Shown here: in pieces, positions 781 to 49,971 of the stretch
How the letters are laid out: each line of letters begins with the position of its first letter
Numbering within the stretch: the stretch's first letter is position 1
Origin: Vicinamibacterales bacterium
Lineage (GTDB): Bacteria > Acidobacteriota > Vicinamibacteria > Vicinamibacterales > UBA2999
Assembly: GCA_030680175.1 (NCBI GenBank)
Contig: JAUXWO010000070.1
Span: 28,896-92,895 of the forward strand
DNA: 64,000 nt
Reading direction: 5' to 3'
The notes under the pieces: model-generated
Seen by the model: only the letters and a program-made list of their open reading frames with translations
Told to the model about the DNA's origin: nothing
Database searches by the model: none
Program-made: the position numbers and the translations under genes

Positions 781-879
781 GGCTGTCAGCGATCAGCTGT
801 CGGCTGTCGGCTGTCAGCTACCAGCTATCGGCGAACAGCGAACAGCGAATCGCGAATAGCGAACGGCGAATAGCGAGCG
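781..879. repeat. Heptamer repeat array A
   Basis: About 14 consecutive 7-bp units run from the CTGTCGG/CTGTCAG class into the CGAACAG/CGAATAG class. The array stops 2 nt before the stop codon of the TPR gene. Unit phase is kept almost throughout. It has no spacers and no coding signal, so it is not CRISPR. Confidence 0.85.
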
Positions 880-2620: not shown

Positions 2621-2713
2621 GGAACGTTCTCCTTAACTTGTCCCTAGATACGTCCAAACCCTCCGGCGCGATCTATCCGATTGGTAACGAAGTGGTAAGG
2701 AAGGAGGCCATCC

Positions 2714-2894
2714 GCTGTTCGCAGTTCGCCATTCGCTTGTTCGCTTCCGGTTCCGCTGCTTCTTGGGCCGGGGCGGTCGGTCGCCCGCGCGAATAGCGAA
2801 TAGCGAACGGCGAAGAGCGAACGGCGAACGGCGAACGGCGAAGAGCAAAGAGCGAACAGCGAAGAGCGAACGGCGAACGGCGAACGGCGAACAG
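2714..2894. repeat. Heptamer repeat array B, fold-back type
   Basis: A left block (about 2714-2755) of units such as CTGTTCG and CCATTCG is followed, after a GC-rich centre, by about 15 units of CGAACGG, CGAAGAG and CGAATAG (2790-2894). The left units are reverse complements of the right class, so the transcript could fold into a long imperfect stem. The array ends 1 nt before the stop codon of the PQQ dehydrogenase. Confidence 0.85.
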
Positions 2895-4826
2895 CTACTG
2901 CGGCAGCGCGAACGCGACGAGTTCCGCCGGCATCTTGCGATCCTGGTCTCCCACCGTGAAGGCGACATACTGCTGGCCTTCATGCAGATAGGTCATCGGC
3001 GGCCCGGTCTGCATGCCGGGAATCTCGATTTCCCAGAGCGTCTCGCCCGTCGCCTTGTCGAGCGCGCGGAAGAACGGCAGCCCGCCCCATCCCTCCCCCG
3101 CAAACAGCAGCGTCTTCGTCGCCAGTAGCCCGGCCCGCGAGCGGCTCCCCATCGGCGGCAGGTCGAGCCCCGCCAGCAGCGCGTGGTTCCGGATCGCCGG
3201 CGGCGTCTCCCCGTTCACGCGCTGCCAGGCGATCGTGCCCGTCTTCAGGTCGATCGCCGTGATCCGCCCGTACGGCGGCTTCACGATCGGCAACCCCTGC
3301 ACGTTCGGCACCCCCATGCCGCCCGCCACCCAGTCGAGGTCCGACTGATCGCTCTTCGCCAGCGCGCCGAGTGACGGGTTCGTCGCCGATCCCACATAGA
3401 TGAGCCCCGTCTCGGGATCGGCCGCGCCGTGCTCCCACTGCGCCCCGCCCGTGAATCCCGGCACGACGATCGTCCCGCGGGTGCCGTCCGGCGCCGCCGC
3501 CAGCGACGGCGGGGTGTAGAGCGGTCCCATGCGGTAACCCTTCACGGCCTCGAGCGCCAGGCGCCGGATCTCCGGCGTGAAGTCGATGAGGTCCCCTTCC
3601 GAGATGCCCTGCCGATCGAACGCGGGCGGCTTCGTCGGAAACGGCTGCGTCGCGGCCGTCCGCTCGCCCGGCACATCGCTCTGCGGCACCGCGCGGTCCT
3701 CGATGGGCCAGATCGGCCGTCCCGTCACACGGTCGAACACGTAGGTGAACGACTGCTTCGTGAAGAGCGCCACCATCTTCACCGTGCGCCCCTCGACGTC
3801 GACATCGATCAGCATCGGCGCCGTGGTGTTGTCGTAGTCCCAGATGTCGTGGCGAATCAGCTGGTAGTGCCACACCACGCGGCCGGTCCGCGCATCCAGG
3901 CACACAAGGCTGCTTGAGTAGACGTTGTCGCCGAGCCGGTGCCCGCCGTAGAGATCGCTCGTGCCGGCTTCGACCGGCAGATACACGTAGCCGAGTTCCG
4001 CATCGGCCGAGAACGGCGCCCACACCCCGGCGTTGCCGGTATAGCGCCACGATTCCTGCTCCCAGGTCTCCGCGAACGGCTCGTCGCCCTGCGGGATCGT
4101 GTGGAAGCGCCACAACGCCTTCCCCGTCCTGACGTCGAAGCCCCGCACGAACCCCGCCACGTTCTTCATCGTCGGGGGCCGGAACCCGAGTTCGAGCGCG
4201 GGCCCGACGATGATCACGCCGTTGACGATGACGGCCGGGGAGCTGCTGCCGATGGGCGCGAGGGGATCGTCGGGATCGCGGCCCATGTCGCGCTTCATGT
4301 CGACGATGCCGCCGGCGCCGAAGGTGGGGATTTGGCGGCCCGTCTTTGCGTCGAGCGCGACGAGTTGGAAGCCCGGCGTCACGACGATGATCCGCTCATC
4401 GCCCTTGTCGTCGGTCCAGTAGGCGACGCCGCGGCCGGAGTTGCGGCGCGGCGACTTCTCTCCCCGCTCTCCTTCGTCGAGCGTCCACGTCCACTTGATG
4501 CGTCCGGTCGCCGGGTCGAGCGCGACGACATCGCGGCGGTTGCCGGCGGTCATGTAGAGCGTGCCGTTGGCGTAGAGCGGCGCCGCGGAGTTCTTGAACT
4601 CGGCCGGGCTGCCGAAGTTCTCGGTCCGGAAGCGCCACCTCATCTGGAGGCTGGCGACGTTCTCGCGTGTGATCTGATCGAGCGGCGAGTAGCGCAGGCT
4701 GCCGAGATCGCCGTGGTAGTGCCGCCACTCCCCCGCCGGATTCCCCTGCTGCGCCACGACGGCACCACTGGGCAGCCACAACACGGCCATCACCACGGCC
4801 AGAAAGCCGAACAGTCTCGCCCACAT
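2895..4826 (-). CDS. PQQ-dependent dehydrogenase (quinoprotein, no heme)
   Basis: A 643-residue exported quinoprotein. After a hydrophobic signal segment (residues 1-26, ending VVAQ) it shows the usual opening of the eight-bladed PQQ propeller (GEWRHYHGDLGSLRYSPL), repeated tryptophan-docking blades (for example GRIKWTWTLD, GKALWRFHT, GTIAWQRVN) and the IRHDIWDYDNT segment characteristic of glucose/alcohol quinoproteins. No CxxCH heme motif is present, so electrons probably pass to a separate acceptor. The substrate, probably a sugar or alcohol in the periplasm, cannot be assigned. The ATG at 4826 is preferred because the upstream in-frame extension is only the 9-bp repeat, read as a proline-valine polymer. 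Confidence 0.85.
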   Translation of the reverse strand: MWARLFGFLAVVMAVLWLPSGAVVAQQGNPAGEWRHYHGDLGSLRYSPLDQITRENVASLQMRWRFRTENFGSPAEFKNSAAPLYANGTLYMTAGNRRDVVALDPATGRIKWTWTLDEGERGEKSPRRNSGRGVAYWTDDKGDERIIVVTPGFQLVALDAKTGRQIPTFGAGGIVDMKRDMGRDPDDPLAPIGSSSPAVIVNGVIIVGPALELGFRPPTMKNVAGFVRGFDVRTGKALWRFHTIPQGDEPFAETWEQESWRYTGNAGVWAPFSADAELGYVYLPVEAGTSDLYGGHRLGDNVYSSSLVCLDARTGRVVWHYQLIRHDIWDYDNTTAPMLIDVDVEGRTVKMVALFTKQSFTYVFDRVTGRPIWPIEDRAVPQSDVPGERTAATQPFPTKPPAFDRQGISEGDLIDFTPEIRRLALEAVKGYRMGPLYTPPSLAAAPDGTRGTIVVPGFTGGAQWEHGAADPETGLIYVGSATNPSLGALAKSDQSDLDWVAGGMGVPNVQGLPIVKPPYGRITAIDLKTGTIAWQRVNGETPPAIRNHALLAGLDLPPMGSRSRAGLLATKTLLFAGEGWGGLPFFRALDKATGETLWEIEIPGMQTGPPMTYLHEGQQYVAFTVGDQDRKMPAELVAFALPQ

Positions 4827-4852
4827 GGCCGAACAGGGTAACAGACTCTCTA

Positions 4853-5061
4853 GCACCCCGGGCACCTTGGGCACCCCGGGCACCTTGGGCACCTTGGGCA
4901 CCTTGGGCACCTTGGGCACCTTGGGCACCTTGGGCACCTTGGGCACCCCGGGCACCGTGGGCACCCCGGGCACCGTGGGCACCTCGGGCACCTTGGGCAC
5001 CCCGGGCACCGTGAGCACCGTGAGCACCCCGAGCACCCCGGGCACCGTGAGCACTCCGGCA
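4853..5061. repeat. 9-bp tandem repeat array (NNGGGCACC)
   Basis: About 23 units of period 9 with consensus NNGGGCACC, where the first two bases are usually TT, CC or GT. Because 9 is a multiple of 3 and no unit contains a stop, it stays open on both strands and artificially lengthens both flanking genes (GTL/GTP on one strand, VPKVPG on the other). It fills the space between the divergent PQQ dehydrogenase and metalloprotease genes, where their promoters should be. Confidence 0.9.
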
Positions 5062-5130
5062 CCCCCTATCTCTTGTCTCTGCGGCCCCGGTGAGGCAGGA
5101 TGGGCGGCACCCACAGCTTTTCAACAGGAT

Positions 5131-5177
5131 GGAGTGCAGGAACTGCGCCGTTTTCGATGTCACGGTGCCAGACCCCT
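5131..5177 (-). repeat. Solo arm of the inverted-repeat element family
   Basis: This 47-bp block is identical, except for one base, to 58608-58654, and on the minus strand matches the left arm of the palindromic element at 56848-56961 (AGGGGTCTGGCACCGTGACA start). It sits 5 to 60 nt upstream of the metalloprotease start and ends just before its ribosome binding site. Confidence 0.8.
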
Positions 5178-5193
5178 GCCCGCGGAGGACCGG

Positions 5194-7689
5194 ATGAGAC
5201 GCACGGTTGTCACCCTGATTGCCCTTCTCGCGATCGCCGCCAGTGCGACCGCCCAGCCTGCTGCCTCCCTCGCCGAGCGGACGAAGGGCCTGACGCGCAC
5301 CGACGGGTTCGTCCCCTTCTACTGGGACGCCGCCCGCGGGCGGCTGCTGCTCGAGGTGCCGGCGTTCGACACCGACGTCCTCTACTACGTCTCCATCGCC
5401 CAGGGCGCCGGGTCCGTCGAGATGTCGCTCGACCGCGGCATCGTCGGCACGGCCGTGATTCATTTCGTACGCGCGGGCGGGCGCGTGCTCGTCGAGCAGC
5501 AGAACCTGGACTACCGCGTCATCAACGGCACGCCGGCGATGCAGGAGAACGTGCGCGACTCGTTCGCCACGTCCGTGCTGGCCGCGCTGCCCGTCGAAGC
5601 CGAGGAGGGCGGGCGCGTGCTGGTGGATGGCACGCCGCTCTTCATGCGCGACGCGGCGGGCGTGGAAGGCCGCCTGCGGCAGGCGAACCAGGGGGCGTTC
5701 CGGCTCGACGTGGGGCGCAGCGCGTTCCACCTGGCACGGACCGGGGCGTTTCCCCGCAACACGGAGGTCGAGACCGTCGTGACGTTCGGCGCCGAGCAGG
5801 CGGGCCTGCTCGTCAACAACGTCACGCCCGACGGCCGGTCGTTCACGATCCGCATTCATCACTCGTTCCTGCAGGCGCCGGAGGGGTACACCCCGCGGCC
5901 CGCCGACCCGCGCATCGGCGTGAGCGCCGTGCGCTTCCGCGACTACGGCCGGCCGTTCAACGAGAGCACCGAGGTGGCGTGGGTCTCGCGGTTCCGGCTG
6001 CAGAAGAAGGACCCCGGCGCGGCGATGAGCGAGCCGGTGGCGCCGATCGTGTTCTATCTGGACCTCGGCATCCCGGAGCCCACGCGCACGGCGATGCGCG
6101 AGGGTGCGCTCTGGTGGAACCGCGCGTTCGAGGCCGCGGGCTACCGCAACGCGGTGCAGGTGCGCGACCCGACGCCCGACATGGATCCGATGGACATCCG
6201 CTATCCGTGGATCCTGTGGATCAACCGTGACGAGCGCGGGTTCTCGAGCGGCGGCACGTATCGCGACCCGCGCACGGGCGAGATCCTGGGATCGAAGACG
6301 CGCATGGACTCGCACCGCATCCGCACGATCGGCAACTACTGGGAGTCGTACACGCCGACGACCGAGGGCGCGGGCGGCGACGAGTGCGCGCTGTTCCTGC
6401 CGGTGCCCGACTTCCTGGTCGACCAGGCGCAGCCGCCGGACCATGCGGGGGCAAGTCCCGGGGGGCTGAACGAGATGGTGCTGCTCCGCCAGGCGTTGCT
6501 GACGGCGCACGAACTCGGCCACGTGTTCGGCTTCGGCCACAACTGGGCGTCGAGCGCCAACGACCGCGCGTCGGTGATGGAGTATCCGACGCCGCGCGTG
6601 AAGGTGCGGGCCGACGGCACGCTCGACTTGAGCGAGTCGTTCGAGGAGGGCACGGGTGTCTACGACGCGTTCATGGCGCGCTATGCCTACACGGAGTTTC
6701 CGGCCGGCCAGGAGGCCGCGGGGCTGGACGCGATCATCCGCGAGATGCGCGCGAAGAACGTGCTCTACACGCCGTCCACCGACCCGCGCTGGGCATGGTA
6801 CGACGACCGCAACGGCCCCACCGAGTACCTGCGCGAGACAATGGCGGCGCGGCGGATCATGCTGAACCGGTATGGCCCGGCGATCCTGCAGCCGGGGGAG
6901 CCGATCGGCGCGCTGCGCGACCTCCGGCTGTGGATGGTCTATCTGCACCACCGGTGGGCGATCGAAGCCGGCGCCCGCTACGTCGGCGGGCAGTACCACA
7001 ACATCGCGGTGAAGGGCGAGAGCCTGCCGCCGACCGCGCCGGTCCCGGCGGCGCTGCAGCGCGAGGTGCTGGGGCTGCTGATGGAGGCGCTCGATCCGGC
7101 GAACCTGGCGATGCCGGAGGCGCTGCTGGCACAGCTCACGCCGGACCCGGGCAGCAACCGGGAAGACATGTCGGAGGACTACCTGTTCGATCATCTGCGC
7201 GCGGCGCGCATTCTCTCGGCGCTCGTGCTCGGCGACCTGCTGGAGCCGGCGCGGGCGGCGCGGCTCGTCGCGCTCAGCGACCGCGACCCGTCGACGGTGT
7301 CGCTCCAGGAGGTGGTGGCGGCCGTCGTCGATCGGACGTGGAGCGCACCGCCGGACGCGGACGCACGGCACAGGGCACTGCGGCGCGTCACCGAGCGCGT
7401 CGCGCTGGATGCGCTGATGATGCTCGGCGCGCACCGGGACGCGACGCCGGAGGTGCGGGCGTTCGTGCTCGACCGGCTGTCGCAGCTCGAGGCGCAGCTC
7501 CGCGCGGGGCCGCATGACCCCGAGCCGCTGACGGCGGCGCACCAGCGCCAGGCCGCACGCGATCTGGCGCGGTATCTCGAGAATCCCTCGGCGAACGCCC
7601 CGACGGCGCTCGCGCCGAACTGGGGCGCACGTCCGCGGTCGCGGTTCCCGCTGCATCCGGGACCGCCGCTTGGGGGGGACATTCAGTAG
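5194..7689 (+). CDS. Zinc-dependent metalloprotease (DUF5117/DUF4953-like)
   Basis: An 831-residue secreted protease. A signal peptide (about residues 1-20, ending ATAQP) is followed by a long beta-rich region of the DUF5117 type and a catalytic domain with HELGHVFGFGH, a metzincin HExxHxxGxxH site starting at His439. A Met-turn-like SVMEYP follows, with Met462. The C-terminal part (DUF4953-like) is helical and ends in a proline-rich tail. The family consists of large extracytoplasmic proteases common in Bacteroidota and Acidobacteriota; the substrate is unknown. The ATG at 5194 is preceded by GGAGGA. The upstream open frame through the 9-bp repeat and the solo element arm is spurious. Confidence 0.88.
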   Translation: MRRTVVTLIALLAIAASATAQPAASLAERTKGLTRTDGFVPFYWDAARGRLLLEVPAFDTDVLYYVSIAQGAGSVEMSLDRGIVGTAVIHFVRAGGRVLVEQQNLDYRVINGTPAMQENVRDSFATSVLAALPVEAEEGGRVLVDGTPLFMRDAAGVEGRLRQANQGAFRLDVGRSAFHLARTGAFPRNTEVETVVTFGAEQAGLLVNNVTPDGRSFTIRIHHSFLQAPEGYTPRPADPRIGVSAVRFRDYGRPFNESTEVAWVSRFRLQKKDPGAAMSEPVAPIVFYLDLGIPEPTRTAMREGALWWNRAFEAAGYRNAVQVRDPTPDMDPMDIRYPWILWINRDERGFSSGGTYRDPRTGEILGSKTRMDSHRIRTIGNYWESYTPTTEGAGGDECALFLPVPDFLVDQAQPPDHAGASPGGLNEMVLLRQALLTAHELGHVFGFGHNWASSANDRASVMEYPTPRVKVRADGTLDLSESFEEGTGVYDAFMARYAYTEFPAGQEAAGLDAIIREMRAKNVLYTPSTDPRWAWYDDRNGPTEYLRETMAARRIMLNRYGPAILQPGEPIGALRDLRLWMVYLHHRWAIEAGARYVGGQYHNIAVKGESLPPTAPVPAALQREVLGLLMEALDPANLAMPEALLAQLTPDPGSNREDMSEDYLFDHLRAARILSALVLGDLLEPARAARLVALSDRDPSTVSLQEVVAAVVDRTWSAPPDADARHRALRRVTERVALDALMMLGAHRDATPEVRAFVLDRLSQLEAQLRAGPHDPEPLTAAHQRQAARDLARYLENPSANAPTALAPNWGARPRSRFPLHPGPPLGGDIQ

Positions 7690-7690
7690 G

Positions 7691-7824
7691 CGACAGGCGA
7701 TCGGCTGTCGGCCTTCAGCTTTCGGCTTCCGGCTGTCGGCTGTCGGCGGTCGGCTTCGGCTTTTTCCGAGAGCTGAGAGCCGGCCGCTGAGAGCCGAGAG
7801 CTGATCGCCGCCGGCCGACAGCTC
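7691..7824. repeat. Heptamer repeat array C, symmetric fold-back
   Basis: The left half has about 9 units of CTGTCGG, CTTTCGG, CCTTCAG and similar. The centre near 7760 reads CTTTTT. The right half has about 8 units of the reverse-complement class (CCGAGAG, CTGAGAG, CCGACAG). The array begins 2 nt after the metalloprotease stop codon and could form a long 3'-end hairpin. Confidence 0.85.
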
Positions 7825-7932: not shown

Positions 7933-8008
7933 GGGCCCGTAGCTCAACTGGCAGAGCAGCAGACTCTTAATCTGTTGGTTGTAGGTTCGATTCCTACCGG
8001 GCTCACCA
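7933..8008 (+). tRNA. tRNA-Lys (anticodon CTT)
   Basis: A 76-nt cloverleaf with genome-encoded CCA. The acceptor arm GGGCCCG pairs with CGGGCTC (one G-U). The D arm is GCTC/GAGC with AACTGGCA in the loop. The anticodon arm GCAGA/TCTGT has loop CTCTTAA, giving anticodon CTT. The T arm is GTAGG/CCTAC with TTCGATT in the loop. It decodes AAG. Confidence 0.97.
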
Positions 8009-17765: not shown

Positions 17766-18395
17766 CTACTCCGCGCAGATGGCGTACACCCACATGGTGG
17801 TTGACCCGCCCGGGTTGTTCAGAGTGACGGTCCACTGTGACATGGGGTAGTAGGGATCAGGGTAGTACTGCGGGAACGACCCCGCGATGTGCACGGCCGT
17901 GCCGTTGATGGTGTTCGTCTGCCAGCCGCCGCCGACGGGCTTCTTGCCGATGGGGCATTCCGCGCTGATCCCAAAGCCGTTGCCGGTCGGGAGGGTCCAC
18001 TGTCTGGTCACAACCTCGTGGCCTTCGAGGGCACCCGCCGGGCCGGCAGGCCCGATCGGCCCCGCCTCCCCCTGCGTGCCCTGCGGACCTGCCGGACCGG
18101 CCGGACCTGCCGGACCTTCCGGACCTGTCGCACCCTCCGGACCTGTCGCACCCGTCGCACCTGCCGGACCCATCGGACCTGTCTCACCGGTCTCGCCCTG
18201 CGGACCGACGACATTCCACTCGACGAAGACTTCGGGGTTGCGGCACTGCGCGGCGCTCGCGGCCAGGCGCATGTTGCCGTTGCTGCGATTGACGCAGGCA
18301 CCGAGCGTCGAGGAGGAGGGCTGTGCGAACGCCGACGGCGCCGCGAACGCGAGGCACACGGCGGCCATAAGGAACAGTCTGGAGGTTGAATTCAA
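17766..18395 (-). CDS. Secreted collagen-like repeat protein
   Basis: A 209-residue protein: signal peptide (residues 1-25, ending SAFAQ), a short Cys-containing region, then about 20 collagen-type Gly-X-Y triplets ([19 protein letters not shown] and onward), then a globular C-terminal domain with a Cys near each end ([15 protein letters not shown] ... VYAICAE). Bacterial collagen-like proteins form trimeric surface or secreted rods. I chose the TTG at 18395, which has GGAG 9 nt upstream and gives the signal peptide its basic residue; the ATG at 18368 has no ribosome site. A short fragment resembling the triplet-coding DNA recurs at 22770-22800. Confidence 0.8.
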
Positions 18396-22615: not shown

Positions 22616-22803
22616 CCCGCCGGGCACGGCGGGCGCCGCCGCGAACGCCGGCCACCGTGCGACCGCCGCGCGGACCTCATCCACGATCGCCTCGGCACGT
22701 CCGCGCTTCATCCACGATCGCCTCGGCGCGTCCGCGCTTGATCCCCGCGCCCCTCGCGCACGCGCACGGACCTCCCGGACCTGTCGGACCTGCCGGACCT
22801 GTG
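22616..22803. pseudogene. Mosaic of hipA and collagen-gene fragments
   Basis: From 22616 to about 22770 the sequence matches the part of hipA encoding MKRGRAEAIVDEVRAAVAQW and following (compare 15990-16105), with a 31-bp tandem duplication (22678-22708 and 22709-22739). It then runs into CCCGGACCT GTCGGACCT GCCGGACCT, the same nonamer as the Gly-X-Y part of the collagen-like gene. It lies between the 3' ends of osmC and the S9 peptidase gene. Confidence 0.65.
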
Positions 22804-26999: not shown

Positions 27000-27133
27000 G
27001 TGGTGGACAGCGGCTCCTGCGGTGGAAAATAGCATGCGCGGGGACACATCCGGACCGCGCCGTGATCCCTACCGGGGCGGCCGTTCTTTCTGCTACAGTG
27101 CGCCTGATCGGGCGCCGTGCGGGCGCGGACGGC

Positions 27134-27161
27134 GCTCGGCTGTCAGCGTTCGGCGTTCGGC
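27134..27161. repeat. Short heptamer tract D
   Basis: Three to four units of the heptamer family (CTGTCAG, CGTTCGG, CGTTCGG) just upstream of the ribosome binding site of the DUF1592 gene. This is the only tract in the window next to a start codon alone. Confidence 0.55.
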
Positions 27162-27181: not shown

Positions 27182-29710
27182 GTGGGACAGGCACCGGCGC
27201 CAGCGCTTCTCGTCGTGGCATCCCTGGTGTGGCTCGGCGCCGCCTCGCACGCCGGTTCGAGCACCGCCGTCCTGCCGGCTTTCCCAGACGCCGCCACTGC
27301 CGGCAGCGCGGTGATGCCTGCGGACACCGCGACGGCCGTCCACGCCGTCACCGCGCCCGTATCGGTGCAGAGCCGGGCCGCCGATCCTTCTCCGGGCGCC
27401 TTCGTCGAGACCTACTGCCTCACCTGCCACAACGACCGTGCGCGCGCCGGCGGGCTGACGCTGGCCGGCGTTGACCTGCTGGATGTCGAGACGCACGCCG
27501 CCCTTGCGGAGAAGGCCCTGCACAAGGTGCGCACGCACCAGATGCCACCGGCCGCGGCACGGCAGCCCGCCCCGGACGCCACGCGGGCCGTCCTGGCCAC
27601 GATCGAACGCGCGCTGGACACGGCGGCGGCGGCGCGCCCGCAGCCGGGCCGCATCGGCGTCCACCGGCTGAACCGCGCGGAGTACGCCAACGCCATCCGC
27701 GACTTGCTGGCGCTCGAAGTCGACACGCACGCGCTGCTGCTGCCCGACGAAGCCGACGAGGGCTTCGACAACGTCGCGGTGAGCCTCGCGCTGTCGCCGG
27801 CGCACCTCGAGCGGTACCTCGACGCCGCGCGGCACATCAGCCGGCTCGCCGTCGGGGATCCCGCGCTCGGCGTCTCGCCGGGCTCGACCGCCTACACCGT
27901 GCCGAAGCTGCTCGAGCAGGACCGGCGGGTCGACGAGGCGCTGCCCTTCGGATCCCGCGGCGGGCTGAGCGTCCGGCATCACTTCCCGTTGAGCGGCGAG
28001 TACACGTTCAAGGTGCGCCTGCGCCGGCAGGTCTACGACTACATCATCGGGATGGGCGTGCCGCAGGCGCTCGACCTCCGCATCGACGGCCGGCGGGTCG
28101 AGCGCTTCACCGTCGGCGGCGACGCGCCCGGGATGCCGGGGCCGCTCACGTGGAACGGCGAGATCGTCGGCGAGACGCCGTGGGAGCTCTTCATGCACGC
28201 CGCCGACGCGGGCCTCGAGGTTCGCCTACCCGTCGAGGCCGGCACGCGGACGGTGAGCGCGTCGTTCGTCGACACGCCGTGGGAGTTCGAAGGGGTGGCG
28301 CAGCCGCCGGCCGTGGACTTCGGCCGCGGATCGGACGAGCGCTACGACGGCCACGCCGCCGTGGACACGCTCGCGATTGCGGGGCCGTACCGTGCCGCCG
28401 GCGCCGGCGACACCGCGAGCCGCCGCGCCATCTTCACCTGCACCCCGGCGACGGCCCGCGCCGAGGACGCATGCGCCACCGAGATCCTCTCGCGCCTGGC
28501 CCGCCGGGCCTACCGCCGTCCCGTGACCACGGACGACGTGCAGACGCTGCTCGCCTTCTACGATCGCGCGCGGTCGACGGGCGGGTTCGAGACCGGCATC
28601 CAGACCGCGATCGAGCGGATGCTCGTCAGCTTCCACTTCCTGTTCCGTGTCGAGACCGATCCGGCGCGCGCGGCGGATGGGGCGCCCTACCGGCTGAGCG
28701 ACCTCGACCTCGCCTCGCGTCTCTCGTTCTTCCTCTGGAGCAGCATCCCCGACGAGGAGCTGTTGGGCCTGGCCGAGGGCGGACGGCTCAGGGATCCGGC
28801 GGTGCTCGAGGCGCAGGTGCGGCGGCTGCTGACGGACCCGCGGTCGCGGGCGCTCGTCGAGAACTTCGGACGCCAGTGGCTGGGCCTGCGCAAGGCGATC
28901 AACTGGGCGCCGGATCCGAACGTCTTCCCCGAGTTCGACGAGAACCTGCGCCGCGCGTTCCTGCAGGAGACGGCGCTCCTGATGGAGGACCAGCTCCGCG
29001 CCGACCGCAGCGTGCTGGACCTGCTGACCGCCGACTACTCGTTCCTGAACGAACGGCTCGCGCGGCACTATGCGATCGACGGCGTCCGCGGGGAACGCTA
29101 TCGCCGCGTGAGGTTCGACGACGACACGCGCGGCGGGCTGCTGGGCCAGGGCGGGATCCTGATGGTGACGTCGTACCCGGACCGCACGGCGCCGGTGCTG
29201 CGCGGCATGTGGGTGCTCGACACACTCCTCGGGATGCCGCCGCCCCCGCCGCCGCCCGACATCCCCACGCTCGAGGCCCGGGCGCCGGACGGCCGCGCGC
29301 TGTCGATGCGCGCGCAGATGGAACAGCACCGGCGGAATCCCGCGTGTGCGACGTGCCACGTGCGCATGGACCCGCTCGGCTTCGCCCTCGAACACTACGA
29401 CGCAGTCGGCCGCTGGCGGGCGCAGGCCGAGGGGCAGCCGGTCGATGCCACGGCCGTCTTCGCCGACGGCACGCCGCTCGATGGCGCGCGCGGTCTCCGC
29501 GCCTTCATCCTGCGCCACGAGGACGACTACATCCACACGTTCACGGCCAAGCTGCTCACCTATGCGCTCGGCCGCCATGTCGACTACCGCGACCAGCCCG
29601 CGCTGCGCGCGATCACCCGCCAGACCGCCGCCGGCGGCCACCGCTGGTCCGCCATCATCCTCGCCATCGTCCAGAGTCCGCCGTTCCAGATGAGGAGTCC
29701 CGCATCATGA
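27182..29710 (+). CDS. DUF1592-type exported protein with cytochrome-like motifs (DUF1587/1592/1588/1585)
   Basis: An 842-residue exported protein. I chose the GTG at 27182: AGGAGG lies 7 nt upstream and it opens on a signal peptide (ALLVVASLVWLGAASHAG). The domain order follows the planctomycete/acidobacterial type: a PSCyt1-like heme motif YCLTCHND (Cys79, Cys82, His83), DUF1587 (VHRLNRAEYANAIRDLLALE), a carbohydrate-binding-like region, DUF1595 (LARRAYRRPVT), DUF1592 (FLWSSIPDEEL), DUF1588 (NPACATCHVRMDPLGFALEH, with a second CxxCH) and DUF1585 at the end. Its stop overlaps the DUF1552 start (ATGA). Such proteins are thought to act in extracytoplasmic polymer metabolism or secretion, but no activity is proven. 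Confidence 0.9.
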   Translation: MGQAPAPALLVVASLVWLGAASHAGSSTAVLPAFPDAATAGSAVMPADTATAVHAVTAPVSVQSRAADPSPGAFVETYCLTCHNDRARAGGLTLAGVDLLDVETHAALAEKALHKVRTHQMPPAAARQPAPDATRAVLATIERALDTAAAARPQPGRIGVHRLNRAEYANAIRDLLALEVDTHALLLPDEADEGFDNVAVSLALSPAHLERYLDAARHISRLAVGDPALGVSPGSTAYTVPKLLEQDRRVDEALPFGSRGGLSVRHHFPLSGEYTFKVRLRRQVYDYIIGMGVPQALDLRIDGRRVERFTVGGDAPGMPGPLTWNGEIVGETPWELFMHAADAGLEVRLPVEAGTRTVSASFVDTPWEFEGVAQPPAVDFGRGSDERYDGHAAVDTLAIAGPYRAAGAGDTASRRAIFTCTPATARAEDACATEILSRLARRAYRRPVTTDDVQTLLAFYDRARSTGGFETGIQTAIERMLVSFHFLFRVETDPARAADGAPYRLSDLDLASRLSFFLWSSIPDEELLGLAEGGRLRDPAVLEAQVRRLLTDPRSRALVENFGRQWLGLRKAINWAPDPNVFPEFDENLRRAFLQETALLMEDQLRADRSVLDLLTADYSFLNERLARHYAIDGVRGERYRRVRFDDDTRGGLLGQGGILMVTSYPDRTAPVLRGMWVLDTLLGMPPPPPPPDIPTLEARAPDGRALSMRAQMEQHRRNPACATCHVRMDPLGFALEHYDAVGRWRAQAEGQPVDATAVFADGTPLDGARGLRAFILRHEDDYIHTFTAKLLTYALGRHVDYRDQPALRAITRQTAAGGHRWSAIILAIVQSPPFQMRSPAS

Positions 29711-31038
29711 TGATCGCCAGGAGGGCGCTGTCGCGCCGCACGATGCTGAAGGCGCTCGGGACGGCCGTGCCACTGCCGCTGCTCGACGCGATGGTGCCGG
29801 CGATGACCGCCCTCCGTCAGACGGCCGCCGCGCCGAAGCTCCGCTTCGGGACGGTGTACGTGCCGAACGGCGTCATCCCGGCGCAGTGGTTTCCGACGGG
29901 CGAGGGGGCGGCGTTCGAGTTCTCGCCGTCGCTCGCGCCGCTCTCGGCCTATCGCGATCGCCTGCTCGTGCTGAGCGGCCTCGACAGCGAGCCGCCGCCG
30001 CCGCCCGGCGAGCGCCAGTTCAACAACCACGCCGACGCCAGCACGCGCTTCCTGACCTCCGTGACGCCGAGCCGGACGCTGCGCGCCGGCGTCTCGATCG
30101 ATCAGATCGCCGCCGGCGTGCTCGGCGAGGACACACCGATGCGGTCGATGGAGCTGGCGCTCGAGTCGGTCGACTCCGGGACGTCGTGCGACTTCGGCCG
30201 GAGCTGCGTCTACACCGGCACGATCGCCTGGGCGGGCGAGACGTCGCCGCTGCCGATGGAGCACGACCCGAGCGCGGCGTTCGTCCGGCTGTTCGGCGAT
30301 GGCGACCTGAGCGACGGTGCGGCGCGGCGGCGGCGCATGCAGCAGCGCGGCAGCATCCTCGACTCCCTGGCCGACGAGGTCGCGCACCTGCGCACACGAC
30401 TGGCCGCCGCCGACCGTACACGGATCGCCGGCTACCTCGAGGCCGTGCGCGACGTGGAGCGGCGCATCCAGAAGACCATCGCGCACAACGCGGAGCTGCC
30501 GGCCTTCGATCGTCCGTCGGGCGTGCCCGAGTCGTTCGCCGAGCACGCACGGCTGATGTTCGACCTGCAGCTGCTGGCCTACCAGGGCGACGTGACGCGC
30601 GTGACGACGTTCATGATCGGGCGGGAGTTCAGCGGACGCACGTATCCGGAGATCGGCGTCCCCGATGCGCATCACCCCATCTCGCATCATCAGCGCGACC
30701 CGGTGCGCATGGAGAAGTGCGCGAAGATCAATCACTACCACGTGTCGCTCTTCGCCGAGTACGTCGAGAAGCTGCGGACGACGCCCGACGGCGACGGCTC
30801 GCTGCTGGACCACTCGGTGATCCTGTACGGCGCGGGGATGAACGAAGGCAACGGCCACGTGCCGCGCAACCTGCCGATCCTGCTCGTCGGCGGTGGCAGC
30901 GGACGCCTGCGGCCCGGGCGGCACATCACGTACGCCGACCGCACCCCGCTCGCCAACATGCAGCTCGGCCTGCTCGACAAGCTGGGCGTGCGCGTCGACG
31001 AGCACGGCAACAGCACGGGACCGGTCAGCCTGGACTGA
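29707..31038 (+). CDS. DUF1552 protein with Tat signal
   Basis: A 443-residue DUF1552 protein. The N-terminus SRRTMLKALG is a twin-arginine signal, meaning it is exported folded, probably with a cofactor. Conserved stretches are RFGTVYVPNGVIPAQWFP, the Cys pair region GTSCDFGRSCVYT, AYQGDVTRVTTFMIGREFS and LYGAGMNEGNGHVPRNLPIL. The HHPISHHQRD cluster could bind metal. DUF1552 genes almost always follow DUF1592 genes, as here, with a 4-nt overlap implying coupled translation. The function is unknown; the fold is thought to be alkaline-phosphatase/sulfatase-like in related families. Confidence 0.92.
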   Translation: MMIARRALSRRTMLKALGTAVPLPLLDAMVPAMTALRQTAAAPKLRFGTVYVPNGVIPAQWFPTGEGAAFEFSPSLAPLSAYRDRLLVLSGLDSEPPPPPGERQFNNHADASTRFLTSVTPSRTLRAGVSIDQIAAGVLGEDTPMRSMELALESVDSGTSCDFGRSCVYTGTIAWAGETSPLPMEHDPSAAFVRLFGDGDLSDGAARRRRMQQRGSILDSLADEVAHLRTRLAAADRTRIAGYLEAVRDVERRIQKTIAHNAELPAFDRPSGVPESFAEHARLMFDLQLLAYQGDVTRVTTFMIGREFSGRTYPEIGVPDAHHPISHHQRDPVRMEKCAKINHYHVSLFAEYVEKLRTTPDGDGSLLDHSVILYGAGMNEGNGHVPRNLPILLVGGGSGRLRPGRHITYADRTPLANMQLGLLDKLGVRVDEHGNSTGPVSLD

Positions 31039-31060: not shown

Positions 31061-31169
31061 AGCGATCAGCTGTCAGCGATCGGCTGTCAGCGGCGATCAG
31101 CTGTCAGCTCTCGGCTATCGGCGCTTCATCGCTGAACGCTGATCGCCGACAGCCGATCGCCGACAGCCA
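31061..31169. repeat. Heptamer repeat array E, fold-back, inside the DUF1552-ankyrin gap
   Basis: Units CGATCAG, CTGTCAG, CGATCGG, CTGTCAG, CTCTCGG, CTATCGG run to about 31115 and are then answered by reverse-complement units (CTGATCG, CCGACAG, CCGATCG, CCGACAG). The array occupies nearly all of the space between two co-directional genes and ends just before the ankyrin ribosome site. Confidence 0.85.
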
Positions 31170-32671: not shown

Positions 32672-32748
32672 AGCTGTCGGCTTTCGGCTGTCGGCTTTCA
32701 GCAGCTCTCAGCTTTCAGCATTTCGCATTCTGCATCTTGCATTCGCCT
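32672..32748. repeat. Heptamer repeat array F
   Basis: About 11 units (CTGTCGG, CTTTCGG, CTTTCAG, CTCTCAG, then drifting to CATTTCG, CATTCTG, CATCTTG) lie between the convergent stop codons of the ankyrin and NHL genes. The drift to AT-richer units suggests older copies. Confidence 0.8.
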
Positions 32749-46314: not shown

Positions 46315-49032
46315 CTAGAAACCGAACCGGACACCGAGTTCCACCTGCCGCGGCGTCGCACCGGTGGCAAGCCCCGTGGGCCGCCCGAACGCCGATGACG
46401 TGAGCGTGCCGACGGGCAGGCCGAGATTCGCCCGGTTCAGCAGATTGAAGGCCTCAACGAAGCCCTCGACCGAGTACCGGCCCGCGCGGACGAACTTCGA
46501 CAGCCGTGCGTCCACCTGGACGAAGCCCGGCCCCGTGTTCGTGTTACGGCCCAGACTACCCGAACGCCCGCGGAAGGCGCTGCCGTACGTGGCCCGGTCC
46601 CGTGGGTCGCCGCCCGGCACCAGCAGATCAGGGCGGTCGTTCAGGTTCTGATCGTTGTTGTTGTCAATCCCCGTGGTCACCGTCCAGGGGAGGCCGCGCC
46701 GTGCCTGCACCAGACCGGCGGCCTGCAGGCCGTACGGCAACGCCCACACGACCGACGCGACGATTTGGTGGCGCCGGTCGTTGCTGGCCAACGCCCACTC
46801 GGCCTCGGGGTCGAAGGCGTCCTGCGCCGTGAAGCCGAAGTCCTCGACGTTGCGCCGCTGCGTCGACCACGTATACGCCAGATTGAAGTGCGGCCCGCGG
46901 CCCGCCCGGCGCTCGAACGACACGAGCAGCGAGTCCGACCGGCTCTCCCCCGTCGTCTGGTACTGGACGACACGCTGATAGGCCGCGTCCGGCCTGACCC
47001 CGGTGCCCGGCAACGGCGCGTTGATGTCCACCGCATTGAACAGGTTGTAGCCGAGCGCGCGCACGACGTCGACGCCAAGCGCGAGCCCCGGCCGGAGTTC
47101 GCGGCGCACGCCGGCGCTGAACGTCCGCGTGGACGGCGTGTCGATCTCGGGCGCCGCAATGGTCCGATTCGGCCGTGGCACGGCGATCGTTCCGCCATCG
47201 AACGGGTCGGGATAGCCCGGATTGACCACCGTGATCGCCGTCGAGCGCGCCGAGTTGCTGATGTTGCCCGAGATGTTGTTGAAACCCTGATCGTAGTAGA
47301 TGCCGAACCCGCCACGCACCACGGTCCGCCCGTCGCCGGTGGGCGTGAACACCACGCCGATCCTCGGGCCGACGTTGTCGAGGTCCTGCGCCACATCAAT
47401 CGCCGCCGCCTTCGCGAAGATCGTCTCGGTGTCATACCGGAGGCCCAGGTTGAGCGTCAGCCGATCGTGCGCGCGCCACGTGGTCTGGGCGAACGCGGAG
47501 TAGATCTCGTTCGAGCGGCGGTCGTACCAGTCGCCGATGGTCTGCGTGAACTGGAACGGATAGGTCGACCGGTCGTTCGGATCGAATGGGGCATCCGTGC
47601 GGAACGTGAACGTGCCGTCCTTGTTGCCGAGGAAGTACGTATCCTGTCCGTCCGTCTGGACGTCCACGCCGATCTTGATGTCGTGGCGCCCGAAGGTATG
47701 CGAGAGCGTGTTGACGGCCTGGTAGCGGACCGACGACCAGCCTTGCGGCATGTTGCTGGCCTTGCCCAGGTTGATCGAGGGCCGGCTGATGCTCACACCC
47801 GACGGATCGGAGTACCGATCCACCGTCCAGAACGTCGACAGCGAGCCGCGCAGCAGTCGCAGTTCGTTGACCGTCCGCGACGTCAGCACCGACGTCAGGG
47901 TGACGATGGCATCCGCGTATTCGTTCGCCTGGTCGTGGCCGCGCTCGTACGGATTGAGCCCGCCGATCCCGCCGCCCTCGGTCGTGCTCTGGTCGAAGCG
48001 GTAGCGGACGCCGATTTGATGAGCCTGGCTGGCCTGGAACTCTGACCGCGCGAAGATCTGGTCGCGGGCGCCGGTCCGGGGAAACTCGCGCCGGTCCACC
48101 GGGACGAGCGGCGAGGTGACGACGCTGGTCGTCTCGTCGCGGAGCAGCTCGACCGTCCCGAAGTAGTGCCACCGGTTCTTCAGGATCGGGCCGCCGAGGA
48201 AGCCGCCGGCCCGTTGTTCGCTGAACGGCGCCTCCCCCGACCCCTGCGCCTTCGAGAACGGATTCTGCGCGTCGAAGGCGTCGTCACGGTGAAACGCGAA
48301 CAGGCGGCCGCTCAGGCGGTTGGTGCCCGACCGCGTGACCACGTTGATGAGCGCGCCCGAGGCGAGACCGTGCTCGGCCGCGAACTGGTTCGTGTAGACG
48401 ACGAACTCGCGCACCGCTTCGAGCGAGAGGCTGCCGCGCTGGCCGGCCACGCCCTGTTCGTCGTTGCTGACGCCGTCGATGACGACGCTGTTGTTGCGGC
48501 TCAACTGGCCGCCGGCGTTGATGCCGCCGCCGCCGACGCCCGTCACGCCTGGCGCCAGGTTGGCGAGGCCGGCGAAGTTCCGGCCGGCCAGCGGCAGGTG
48601 GTCCAACTGGGTGGAGGTCACCGTCGTGCCGAGCGCGCTCGACGCGGTGTCGACGAGCGGGGCGCGCGCCTCGACGGTCACCACCTCGGAGATGGACGCC
48701 ACGTGCAGCGCCACGTCCACCGTGGCCGTCTGGCCGACGGTGAGCACGAGCCCGGTCCGCTCGTGGGGCACGAAGCCATCGAGGCTCGCACGCAGCACGT
48801 ACGCCCCTGGCGGCAGGGCCGTCACACGATAGAAGCCGGCGCCATCCGCGGGCGCTTCGCGCACGAGGCCGGTCTCGACGTTCGTGATCACCACCGTGAC
48901 ACCAGGCAAGACCCCGCCTTCGCTGTCGGCCACGACGCCCTGCAGTGCGGCGCTCGTGACCTGCGCGGAGGCGGCGCCCGCCAACGCGAGCCACGCCAAT
49001 GCAACCCCTACCCCTCGAATCAGTCTCTTCAT
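46315..49032 (-). CDS. Oar-like TonB-dependent receptor
   Basis: A 905-residue outer-membrane receptor of the acidobacterial Oar/CarboxypepD_reg type. Signal peptide (ending ASAQ), a carboxypeptidase-regulatory beta domain (about residues 27-110: LQGVVADSEGGVLPGVTVVI), a plug with GGQLSRNNSVVIDGVSNDEQ and SGALINVVTRSGTN, and a long barrel ending GVRFGF, as required for BAM recognition. Such receptors import large or peptide-like substrates. It is the first gene of an operon with the S9 peptidase. The ATG at 49032 has GGAGAAGG upstream. A hairpin lies about 70 nt before the gene. Confidence 0.92.
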   Translation of the reverse strand: MKRLIRGVGVALAWLALAGAASAQVTSAALQGVVADSEGGVLPGVTVVITNVETGLVREAPADGAGFYRVTALPPGAYVLRASLDGFVPHERTGLVLTVGQTATVDVALHVASISEVVTVEARAPLVDTASSALGTTVTSTQLDHLPLAGRNFAGLANLAPGVTGVGGGGINAGGQLSRNNSVVIDGVSNDEQGVAGQRGSLSLEAVREFVVYTNQFAAEHGLASGALINVVTRSGTNRLSGRLFAFHRDDAFDAQNPFSKAQGSGEAPFSEQRAGGFLGGPILKNRWHYFGTVELLRDETTSVVTSPLVPVDRREFPRTGARDQIFARSEFQASQAHQIGVRYRFDQSTTEGGGIGGLNPYERGHDQANEYADAIVTLTSVLTSRTVNELRLLRGSLSTFWTVDRYSDPSGVSISRPSINLGKASNMPQGWSSVRYQAVNTLSHTFGRHDIKIGVDVQTDGQDTYFLGNKDGTFTFRTDAPFDPNDRSTYPFQFTQTIGDWYDRRSNEIYSAFAQTTWRAHDRLTLNLGLRYDTETIFAKAAAIDVAQDLDNVGPRIGVVFTPTGDGRTVVRGGFGIYYDQGFNNISGNISNSARSTAITVVNPGYPDPFDGGTIAVPRPNRTIAAPEIDTPSTRTFSAGVRRELRPGLALGVDVVRALGYNLFNAVDINAPLPGTGVRPDAAYQRVVQYQTTGESRSDSLLVSFERRAGRGPHFNLAYTWSTQRRNVEDFGFTAQDAFDPEAEWALASNDRRHQIVASVVWALPYGLQAAGLVQARRGLPWTVTTGIDNNNDQNLNDRPDLLVPGGDPRDRATYGSAFRGRSGSLGRNTNTGPGFVQVDARLSKFVRAGRYSVEGFVEAFNLLNRANLGLPVGTLTSSAFGRPTGLATGATPRQVELGVRFGF

Positions 49033-49104
49033 GGTTCCTTCTCCTCGACTGGCGGCCGGCCACCCGCGGAGCACGGAACACTTCAGGCGCTGCCGAACGC
49101 AGCG

Positions 49105-49134
49105 AAGGGCCGTCATCCACGGATGACGGCCCTT
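49105..49134 (-). terminator. Strong hairpin in the leader of the TonB receptor operon
   Basis: AAGGGCCGTCAT-CCACGG-ATGACGGCCCTT has perfect 12-bp arms. It lies 72 nt upstream of the TonB receptor start, inside its probable 5' leader. No T-tract follows on the minus strand, so it may be a structural or regulatory hairpin rather than a terminator. Confidence 0.5.
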
Positions 49135-49251
49135 CAACGATCCGCCCGGACTACCCGGACGGACACTCCTGCTGTTGAGACACCCTCATCCACTCGCCTC
49201 GACGTGACAGCGCATTCGACAACGGAGGATGTGGGCAGTGATGAACATGGC

Positions 49252-49342
49252 GGCGATCAGTCGGCTCTCAGCTCTCGGCTCTCGGCTCTCGGCTCTCGGC
49301 TCTCAGCAATCGGCTATCGGCTATCGGCTCTCGGCGATCAGT
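49252..49342. repeat. Heptamer repeat array G
   Basis: About 12 units of the CTCTCGG/CTATCGG class between CGATCAG units at each end; four CTCTCGG copies in a row are identical. It lies between the two hairpins upstream of the TonB receptor gene. The homogeneity suggests recent expansion. Confidence 0.85.
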
Positions 49343-49352
49343 TCCAGAACGC

Positions 49353-49387
49353 AAAAAGGCCCGGACGGCGGTGACGCCATCCGGGCC
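49353..49387 (-). terminator. Intrinsic terminator (minus strand)
   Basis: GGCCCGGATGGC-GTCACC-GCCGTCCGGGCC with 12-bp arms and one mismatch, followed on the minus strand by TTTTT (49357-49353). It is the best Rho-independent terminator in the window. It most likely ends transcription of the small zinc-ribbon gene at 49535-49771. Confidence 0.75.
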
Positions 49388-49413
49388 AGTGTGCAGTTCC
49401 TGTGGTCGTGCGG

Positions 49414-49494
49414 TTACGCGGGCACGATGGACGACACAGCATGGCGCACGGAGGCGTGGCCCCCGAAGTCGCAACACATGCAGGTCATCATCAT
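49414..49494 (-). CDS. Possible 26-residue Cys/Met-rich mini-ORF before the terminator
   Basis: ATG ATG ATG start codons open a short frame with MMMTCMCCDFGGHASVRHAV and a TAA stop 27 nt before the terminator stem. Three of its first eight residues are Cys and two more are His. It lacks a clear ribosome site. It could be a leader peptide, a small metal-binding peptide or chance; I list it as tentative. Confidence 0.25.
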   Translation of the reverse strand: MMMTCMCCDFGGHASVRHAVSSIVPA

Positions 49495-49534
49495 CAACAC
49501 GATGGAGGACTATCCCACGTGACGCCCGTACGTG

Positions 49535-49771
49535 TCAACGGGGTGGCCGACGATCCGCGGCACGGCGACGCAGACGCGCGCCGGCCGGGTCCGCGTGCTG
49601 ACGGCGATCCCAGCTCCGGTTGGCCCAGCCGCGCCAGCGACACGAGACGCAGCGGTATGGCCACTGCTGGGTGAGCCAGTGGCGCAGGCGATCCCACGCG
49701 CCATGGAGGTGCGACGGCCGCAGCGGATAGCGCCCGCAGTGTGGGCACCCCTGGAGCACGCGGTACGACAC
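49535..49771 (-). CDS. Small zinc-ribbon protein
   Basis: A 78-residue protein from a GTG at 49771, which has AGGAG exactly 7 nt upstream. It has a four-cysteine zinc finger split around a helical stretch: GCPHCGRYPLRPSHLHGAWD and WPYRCVSCRWRGWANRSW, a pattern typical of small acidobacterial zinc-ribbon proteins of unknown role. The C-terminus is Arg-rich and may bind nucleic acid. It is divergent from the zinc-ribbon gene at 49972, and its transcript would end at the terminator at 49353-49387. Confidence 0.6.
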   Translation of the reverse strand: MSYRVLQGCPHCGRYPLRPSHLHGAWDRLRHWLTQQWPYRCVSCRWRGWANRSWDRRQHADPAGARLRRRAADRRPPR

Positions 49772-49971
49772 GTGGCGTCTCCTGGCGCAGGCGTTCCCAG
49801 CACGGCAGGGGGGCCAGCGCTGGCGCGAAGCCTGACTGACCCGCATTGTGCCACCTGGGGCGCCGCCCGTGGCGGCGGCGTCGTGGTTTTCGTGCAGGGG
49901 ACTCCCGCCCCTCCGCGCGCGGCGGTGCCTGGGCGGGACGCGCGGCGCCGGCATAGAATCAGACGACCACC

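What the first reader, a model, noticed from the sequence alone, without database searches (positions are those of the whole stretch)
2714..2894. A 7-bp-period intergenic repeat family at seven loci
Seen directly: tandem heptamers of two classes, CTNTCRG and CGAANRG (bridged by CGATCRG), occur at 781-879, 2714-2894, 7691-7824, 27134-27161, 31061-31169, 32672-32748 and 49252-49342. Five of the seven lie within about 25 nt of a stop codon. They lack spacers, coding potential and any adjacent transposase. I know of no named family with this unit. Inference: they may be 3'-end mRNA structure elements or slippage-expanded REP-like sequences.
Basis: seen in the sequence. Interest (0 to 1): 0.78.

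Follow-up and report, generated by a model that had tools for sequence, protein, structure and literature searches.

The report
Seven-base tandem repeats after stop codons
This bacterium's genome carries many short tandem repeats whose unit is seven bases long, mostly packed into the gaps just after genes; related bacteria carry the same seven-base rhythm with other letters, so the step length is shared rather than the sequence, and the arrays likely grow by a copying slip of seven bases where a slip does no harm.

Summary
In detail: heptads at all seven loci, 5 of 7 within 25 nt of a predicted stop. Genome-wide the two patterns match 434 and 502 times, overlapping matches counted. In this genome and six relatives together 97 of 121 arrays lie within 25 nt of a stop (null 66.4, sd 3.5); divergent spacers are avoided. 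Units are genome-specific and change at the same spacer between relatives. Hairpins are a minority, strand bias is absent overall, no reverse transcriptase was found here, and RAYT counts do not track arrays. The kind is known: heptameric intergenic repeats of Xanthomonas, Nostoc and Beggiatoaceae (PMC4692102, PMC4679880). New here: coexisting degenerate families, a genome-specific vocabulary, fixed and free unit columns, unit turnover at one site. Likely mechanism: 7-nt slippage plus exchange between arrays, filtered by selection.

The parts
782..879 (+). array of 14 heptads, RGCTNTC units turning in phase into RGCGAAN units; ends 1 nt from the stop (881-883) of the minus-strand gene 881-2620
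   Evidence: scan; gene calls; sequence
2709..2736 (-). left arm: 4 heptads of the RGCGAAN class on the minus strand
2789..2893 (+). right arm: 15 RGCGAAN heptads, 1 nt from the stop (2895-2897) of the minus-strand PQQ dehydrogenase gene 2895-5054
   Evidence: Pfam PF01011
7690..7752 (+). 9 heptads, RGCTNTC class, starting directly after the stop of gene 5134-7689
7766..7807 (-). inverted arm of the same class; pairs with 7698-7739 (31 of 42 positions)
27125..27159 (+). 5 weak heptads in a divergent spacer; below the lag-7 threshold
31062..31120 (+). 4 + 4 RGCTNTC/RGCGATC heptads with a 3-bp phase break, 23 nt after the stop of gene 29710-31038
   Evidence: period-14/17/31 rows
31126..31167 (-). 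6 heptads of the same class on the opposite strand
32673..32748 (+). 4 clear heptads (32673-32700) and looser ones beyond, between two convergent stops (32650 and 32754)
49264..49340 (+). 11 RGCTNTC heptads in a stretch without called genes (48999 to 50248)

Best explanation
The window holds seven of the many tandem 7-bp arrays in this genome, which lie mostly in the gap right after stop codons, and they likely arise and turn over by misalignment of the copying strand in 7-nt steps, wherever a length change that is not a multiple of three is tolerated. Shown: the 7-bp period, intergenic placement, closeness to stops, avoidance of divergent (promoter) spacers, genome-specific units, and presence or absence at orthologous spacers. 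Inferred: (1) birth and length change by slipped-strand or repair synthesis with a 7-nt (rarely 8-nt) quantum; (2) occasional template switching between arrays, which would keep one vocabulary of units within a genome; (3) purifying selection, which would remove arrays from genes (frameshift) and from 5' regulatory DNA, leaving the stop-side edge of spacers. The arrays would be mainly mutational passengers of tolerant sites, not strand-specific RNA signals.
For: Period: lag 7 covers 661 bp per 100 kb here, lags 4, 5 and 10 cover 20, 0 and 0; among lags 4-16, lag 7 is the highest one not divisible by 3 (its multiple 14 aside) in 10 of 10 genomes sampled. Placement: 45.6 against 0.46 bp per kb; 31 of 45 within 25 nt of a stop, null 20.5 sd 2.4, while closeness to starts is not raised (14 of 39, null 16.7); pooled 97 of 121, null 66.4 sd 3.5; divergent spacers 10 of 132 against 96 of 481, Fisher p 6e-4. 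Turnover: one orthologous spacer holds GGGTAGT arrays here, AATAACG and CTGCCTT arrays in G107, GGGAGTC in G112 and none in G114 and G117; in G107 and G112 it is about 2.5 kb long. Another holds RGCTTTC in G107 and AAGGCAG in G111 at the same place and none in five siblings. Local duplication: adjacent units are identical more often than shuffled in two of four classes (0.193 against 0.131; 0.415 against 0.334), at unit lag 2 in a third (0.330 against 0.200). Exchange: ordered unit strings are shared between arrays more than after shuffling in class C (3-mers 9 against 2.9, sd 1.8; 4-mers 4 against 0.3, sd 0.6) and B (3-mers 8 against 3.1, sd 2.0) (two arms of one locus count as two arrays there). 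Vocabulary: consensus units differ by at most 1 base in 20.3% of within-genome pairs, 5.5% between genomes, label-shuffle maximum 11.5%. In very similar Cyanothece strains TAACTGA sets differ mostly by indels of 7 nt (passage of PMC4679880); slippage with a 7-nt polymerase contact is an earlier proposal reported in PMC4692102 and PMC4679880.
Against: Plain slippage predicts a spread of periods, not 7 with a little 8; and unit letters set by the local seed, not shared genome-wide. Variation sits unevenly in the columns of the unit in 12 of 13 clusters, which neutral mutation plus slippage does not give. In the GCGAAN class adjacent units are no more alike than array mates (0.192 against 0.204), and in class A shared ordered 3-mers do not exceed shuffles (3 against 1.8, sd 1.3). 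Siblings mostly share about 70-90% protein identity in the compared blocks, too diverged to date arrays. Of 15 orthologous spacers compared, 7 hold no array in any genome, and whether two lineages share a site more often than chance was not tested.
Confidence: 0.5

Rival explanations
1. Recognition-driven arrays: a DNA-binding or DNA-cutting protein recognises the fixed columns of the heptad, and its action or its selective value builds and keeps the arrays; for example 7-nt staggered breaks filled in and joined would add exactly one unit per round.
For: Uneven columns in 12 of 13 clusters of at least 4 arrays (heptads treated as independent); Xanthomonas units are likewise reported as most conserved at positions 1-4 and 6; the GCGAAY unit recurs in many phyla; Ku present in 19 of 22 genomes including this one.
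Against: No candidate protein; several motifs coexist in one genome; Ku is also present in array-poor G112, G114, G094 and G086 and was not found in G059, rich in GCTNTCR (79% complete); one cluster of 15 heptads shows no column effect (p 0.98).
Confidence: 0.22
2. Functional 3'-end elements: transcribed arrays act as terminators or mRNA stabilisers, bidirectional where the arms are inverted.
For: Closeness to stops; long inverted arms at some convergent sites, e.g. C11 175037-175324, 106 of 139 positions; a tilt to sense within 30 nt of the stop, 20 against 13 here and 9 against 5 in G107 (not significance-tested).
Against: Only 8 of 49 arrays are hairpin-like; overall orientation is even; the same spacers are empty in siblings; units differ between genomes.
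Confidence: 0.15
3. REP/BIME-type elements moved by a RAYT (TnpA-REP) transposase.
For: Three Y1_Tnp genes in this genome, one with a short heptad stretch upstream (L085 about 1207-1252).
Against: All three are flanked by other repeats (GGGGTCAGATC, GGGGTCAGGTC and GGGGTCTGGCAC types); array-rich G044 (97% complete) has no Y1_Tnp match and array-poor G112 and G114 have 5 and 6; no conserved element body.
Confidence: 0.03
4. Templated addition by a reverse transcriptase (telomerase-like or diversity-generating).
For: Genome-specific vocabulary with degenerate columns.
Against: No RVT_1 match in this genome, G107, G111 or the single-contig G189, all array-bearing; 6 of 22 genomes have one, and the search rings in 3 of 14 control genomes.
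Confidence: 0.02

Closest known systems
GGGAATC / GGGGA(C/T)T heptamer repeats of Xanthomonas and Nostoc (PMC4692102; sections 10 and 16 and passages read)
   Same: 7-bp unit, 89-93% intergenic in Xanthomonas, mean 28 nt to the 5' ORF, inverted pairs (70 and 75 cases beside 186 and 183 arrays), few between divergent ORFs, units most conserved at positions 1-4 and 6
   Different: There one G-tract unit type studied per genus and read as G-quadruplex; here several families at once, the two window classes have no G-run of three in their consensus, and units differ between relatives
TAACTGA direct repeats of Beggiatoaceae, cyanobacteria, Bacteroidetes (PMC4679880; abstract and passages read)
   Same: Intergenic heptamers, patchy distribution, 7-nt indels between very similar strains
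   Different: There one unit, mostly just upstream of start codons in the BOGUAY genome; here degenerate units near stops, both orientations
STRR heptanucleotide repeats of Calothrix/Anabaena (Mazel 1990; recalled; three tandem heptanucleotides of Calothrix PCC7601 are mentioned in a passage of PMC4692102)
   Same: Tandem heptanucleotides, several kinds in one genome
   Different: Not compared by sequence here
REP/BIME with RAYT
   Same: Intergenic, some inverted pairs
   Different: No common hairpin core and no RAYT that tracks the arrays

Membership tests
Heptameric intergenic tandem repeats (Xanthomonas/Nostoc/Beggiatoaceae kind) | 7-bp unit in tandem | tested here: met
Heptameric intergenic tandem repeats (Xanthomonas/Nostoc/Beggiatoaceae kind) | intergenic, near the upstream ORF's stop, rare between divergent ORFs (Xanthomonas form) | tested here: met
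Heptameric intergenic tandem repeats (Xanthomonas/Nostoc/Beggiatoaceae kind) | a share in inverted pairs | tested here: met
   8 of 49 arrays score 30 or more (11 of 196 random segments); 5 score 60 or more against a control maximum of 49
G-quadruplex-forming heptamers (GGGAATC type) | G-run of three or more in each unit | tested here: not met
   consensus RGCTNTC and RGCGAAN lack it; GGTNGTR units have it when R is G
REP/RAYT | RAYT gene co-distributed with the repeat | tested here: not met
   flanks
CRISPR arrays | repeats separated by unique spacers | tested here: not met
   units are contiguous
RT-made repeats (telomerase-like, DGR) | reverse transcriptase in the genome | tested here: not met
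   no RVT_1 match in G000
Transcription terminators | RNA 3' ends at the arrays | not testable with these tools
   no RNA-seq
Known RNA families | Rfam match at an array | tested here: not met
   the only gathering-level match in the window is a tRNA at 7933-8005

The most novel reading that the evidence does not exclude
Bacterial heptad arrays are products of a dedicated, sequence-reading DNA process with a fixed 7-bp step: each genome has its own heptad vocabulary with fixed and free columns, written into the stop-side edge of spacers and rewritten as lineages diverge. The conserved thing would be the step, not the sequence, and the responsible activity, which needs no reverse transcriptase or RAYT, is unknown.
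Probability: 0.2. Interest if true: 0.85.

Novelty: new variant of a known kind. Interest (0 to 1): 0.6.

Why it matters
Heptameric repeats have been seen in scattered bacteria and discussed case by case (G-quadruplex, translation signal). Here the same 7-bp period, stop-side placement and divergent-spacer avoidance occur with genome-specific units that need no G-run, and the unit can differ at one site while the period stays. That separates the period from any one sequence and makes the old question 'why seven' testable: by strain comparison, mutation accumulation and a search for the responsible polymerase or nuclease.

Tried and rejected
RAYT/REP: disfavoured by distribution and flanks; the heptad stretch upstream of one RAYT (L085 about 1207-1252) was not followed up. 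Reverse transcriptase templating: no RVT_1 match in this genome. SbcCD loss as the cause of array richness: SbcD has no match at E 0.001 in 26 of 32 genomes, rich and poor alike, and the one genome over the cut-off (G189) also has arrays; its absence may permit the long palindromes but does not explain richness. Ku: present in 19 of 22, does not separate rich from poor. Hairpin as the general form: 8 of 49. Strand-specific RNA signal such as Rho loading sites: orientation even overall (11 divergent and 11 coding arrays of this genome and G107 left out of that count). Known RNA family: none at an array. Simple vertical inheritance of the GCTNTCR class: counts jump between same-genus species, 495 in G059 and 0 in G058, 140 in G107 and 0-3 in its eight genus mates. 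Papers: on heptamer repeats led to the two known cases; some searches listed one or both again; one search added nothing; a search for six 14-mers of these units found no paper in the held library.

Limits: gene calls are from my own script, not a standard gene finder; array edges by lag-7 windows can overshoot by some bases, so 'overlaps a stop codon' (53 of 131) is an upper figure; the G107 stretches were chosen around GCTNTCR arrays and are biased to that class (repeats the test without G107: 17.1% against 3.8%, shuffle maximum 10.1%); the cross-phylum loci were chosen by holding a GCGAAYA array. Of 52 arrays, 2 were mostly coding and 2 lay at sequence ends, leaving 48. Units containing N were left out, and clusters of fewer than 4 arrays. 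In one search the G116 row was dropped at the key spacer and G110 was missing there; spacers without orthologues were not compared. Class A's invariant G and C hold in a scan that allowed one mismatch per heptad; in the unfiltered clusters those columns are 100% and 94%.

Full report
OBSERVATION. The seven stretches are as described. Two unit classes fill them: RGCTNTC (with RGCGATC bridging) and RGCGAAN. Five of the seven lie within 25 nt of a predicted stop codon; 27134 is in a divergent spacer and 49252 in a stretch without called genes. In the whole genome (4.98 Mb, 143 contigs) GCTNTCRGCTNTCRGCT matches 502 times (reversed control 241, but that control shares the unit in another register) and GCGAANRGCGAANRGCGAA 434 times (control 1); successive units of one array count as separate matches.

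SCAN WITHOUT A SEQUENCE MODEL. I fetched 390.9 kb of this genome (C11, C2 and C1, chosen because the first listed matches showed them to be long; each taken from base 1 in one run) and added the window. Regions self-similar at lag 7 number 49, against 0 in one shuffled sequence. With a 21-base window, lag 7 covers 45.6 bp per kb of intergenic and 0.46 of coding DNA; lags 4, 5, 6, 10, 11 and 13 lie at 0 to 1.1 intergenic, lag 8 at 8.6, lag 9 at 11.2. The arrays include families the window does not show: GGTNGTR, GGTGRAC, GATTGCA, TTCTGCA and a minor 8-bp ATCACCAC family.

PLACEMENT. Of 48 intergenic arrays (4 of 52 set aside: 2 coding, 2 at ends), 31 of the 45 that have a neighbouring stop lie within 25 nt of it; random placement in the same spacers gives 20.5 (sd 2.4). 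Closeness to starts is not raised (14 of 39, null 16.7), and in tandem spacers arrays are nearer to the stop than to the start in 21 of 36, null 17.2, not significant. Divergent spacers of 60 bp or more hold arrays in 3 of 44 cases, others in 37 of 144 (p 0.006). Over seven genomes, this one included: 97 of 121 near a stop, null 66.4 (sd 3.5); divergent 10 of 132, others 96 of 481 (p 6e-4); 29 of 165 arrays were mostly coding. Of 82 GCGAAYA arrays from many phyla, 14 lay inside long ORFs and 16 at edges; 27 of the 45 with a neighbouring long-ORF stop were within 25 nt of it, null 16.5 (sd 2.2).

RELATIVES. GCGAAN arrays are rich only here (24 of 193 genomes of the class have any; next best 9 matches). 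GCTNTCR arrays are patchy: 54 of 193 genomes, with 0 and 495 matches in two species of one genus. Yet lag 7 is the strongest lag not divisible by 3 (14, its multiple, aside) in all ten genomes sampled, at 70 to 694 bp per 100 kb (60 to 454 kb each). Units differ: GGGATCA in G112, GGGCTCC and AAGGCAG in G107, CCCGATT in G189, which is the Xanthomonas unit GGGAATC on the other strand. With one unit per locus (157 loci, seven genomes), 20.3% of within-genome pairs differ by at most one base, 5.5% of between-genome pairs, and at most 11.5% when labels are shuffled.

TURNOVER. At the spacer beside this genome's C11:107024-107692 gene five lineages could be compared: two GGGTAGT arrays here (310 bp), AATAACG and CTGCCTT arrays in G107 and GGGAGTC in G112 (spacers of about 2.5 kb in both), none in G114 and G117 (139 and 173 bp). 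In a second 14-kb block, 5 of 7 spacers hold an array in at least one of seven genus mates, 3 of 7 in two of them; one spacer has RGCTTTC in G107 and AAGGCAG in G111 at the same position, another the same unit in G112 and G111. Of the 15 spacers compared in both blocks, 7 hold no array in any genome. Heptads also sit inside a coding gene that I recognise from recalled motifs as enolase: the loop before LPVPMMNILNGG is short in G110 and G112 and longer in the other five genomes examined, read in one frame in all seven; GGGATCC and GGGCTCC units are plain in G109 and G107.

UNIT GRAMMAR. Variation is not spread evenly over the unit. In RGCTNTC, G2 and C3 are invariant in 163 heptads of a scan that allowed one mismatch per unit, while column 5 takes all four bases; in RGCGAAN, columns 2-6 are 96-100% fixed; GGTNGTR has a free column 4 and a purine column 7. 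De novo clustering without a mismatch filter agrees, with fixed columns at 90-100% in the GCGAAN cluster and 92-100% in RGCTNTC apart from its T4 (68%); column unevenness has chi-square p between 9e-4 and 1e-46 in 12 of 13 clusters of at least 4 arrays, and 0.98 in one of 15 heptads (heptads counted as independent). Xanthomonas units show the like. This is the least explained observation.

WHAT IT IS NOT. No overall strand bias to the gene with the nearest stop (26 sense, 28 antisense here; 9 and 10 in G107), with a tilt to sense within 30 nt (20 against 13; 9 against 5). Hairpins in 8 of 49 arrays, though five exceed every control. No RVT_1 match in this genome, G107, G111 or G189. RAYTs are present, carry other repeats and do not track arrays, though one has heptads upstream. 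SbcD has no match in 26 of 32 genomes, rich or poor, and Ku is present in 19 of 22.

READING. Best supported: local growth by 7-nt misalignment during copying, some exchange between arrays (shared unit strings exceed shuffles in two of four classes), and selection that leaves them at the stop side of spacers. Slippage, exchange and selection are inferred. Two facts strain it: the narrow 7 (and little 8) period, and the fixed and free columns. A sequence-reading DNA process with a 7-bp step remains open and is the novel reading.

KNOWN WORK. PMC4692102 (sections 10 and 16 and passages read) reports 186 and 183 GGGAATC arrays in two Xanthomonas genomes with the same placement and inverted pairs. 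PMC4679880 (abstract and passages) reports TAACTGA sets, mostly before start codons, and describes an earlier survey, which I take to be Mrazek 2007 and did not see, in which heptanucleotides were the commonest long-repeat category in most genomes, with the polymerase-contact idea. Three general surveys were read by passages only: PMC12699852 notes that a subset of 6-9 bp units is highly enriched in prokaryotic phyla, PMC6749651 that some abundant bacterial satellites derive from heptamers and hexamers, PMC4060949 that units of 4-11 bp are normally or weakly over-represented.

Noticed in passing
L142 5660-5830 and orthologues in L171-L176: Heptad repeats inside a coding gene (enolase by recalled motif): a loop lengthened in frame by 7-bp units in G107 and G109; the loop is longer in 5 of the 7 genus mates examined.
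   Followed up: partly
G000:C11:175037-175324 (L069): 288-bp near-palindrome made of GGGTAGT and GGTGGAC heptads between convergent genes, arms of 139 columns with 106 matches and a 2-nt loop; no SbcD match was found in this genome.
   Followed up: partly
L083 1261-1310, 2294-2342, 3060-3106: Short hairpins of the type GGGGTCAGATCTTGATCC on both sides of a RAYT gene: a REP-like family of its own.
   Followed up: no
L085 about 1207-1252: A short run of heptads (GGTGGAC, then RGCGATC/AGCAATC-like units) some 200 bp upstream of a RAYT gene.
   Followed up: no
window 4853-5063: 9-bp/18-bp tandem repeat (GGGCACCTT, about 12 copies of 18) at the start of the PQQ dehydrogenase gene or in the divergent spacer before it.
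   Followed up: no
window 18080-18192 and 22677-22802: Two stretches of 9/18/27/31-bp tandem repeats sharing the CGGACCTGC unit.
   Followed up: no
G000:C1:26493-33745 and C2:1402-73988: An 8-bp repeat family (ATCACCAC/ATCACCAG) several times, with stretches like ATCTGACATC nearby.
   Followed up: no
L142 4694-4803 and 6180-6299: A roughly 110-bp sequence present twice in opposite orientation and matched at many places in G113 and G114: a dispersed inverted element in genus g2.
   Followed up: no
32 genomes of the class: SbcD (TIGR00619) has no match at E 0.001 in 26 of 32 genomes although it rings in 13 of 14 control genomes.
   Followed up: no
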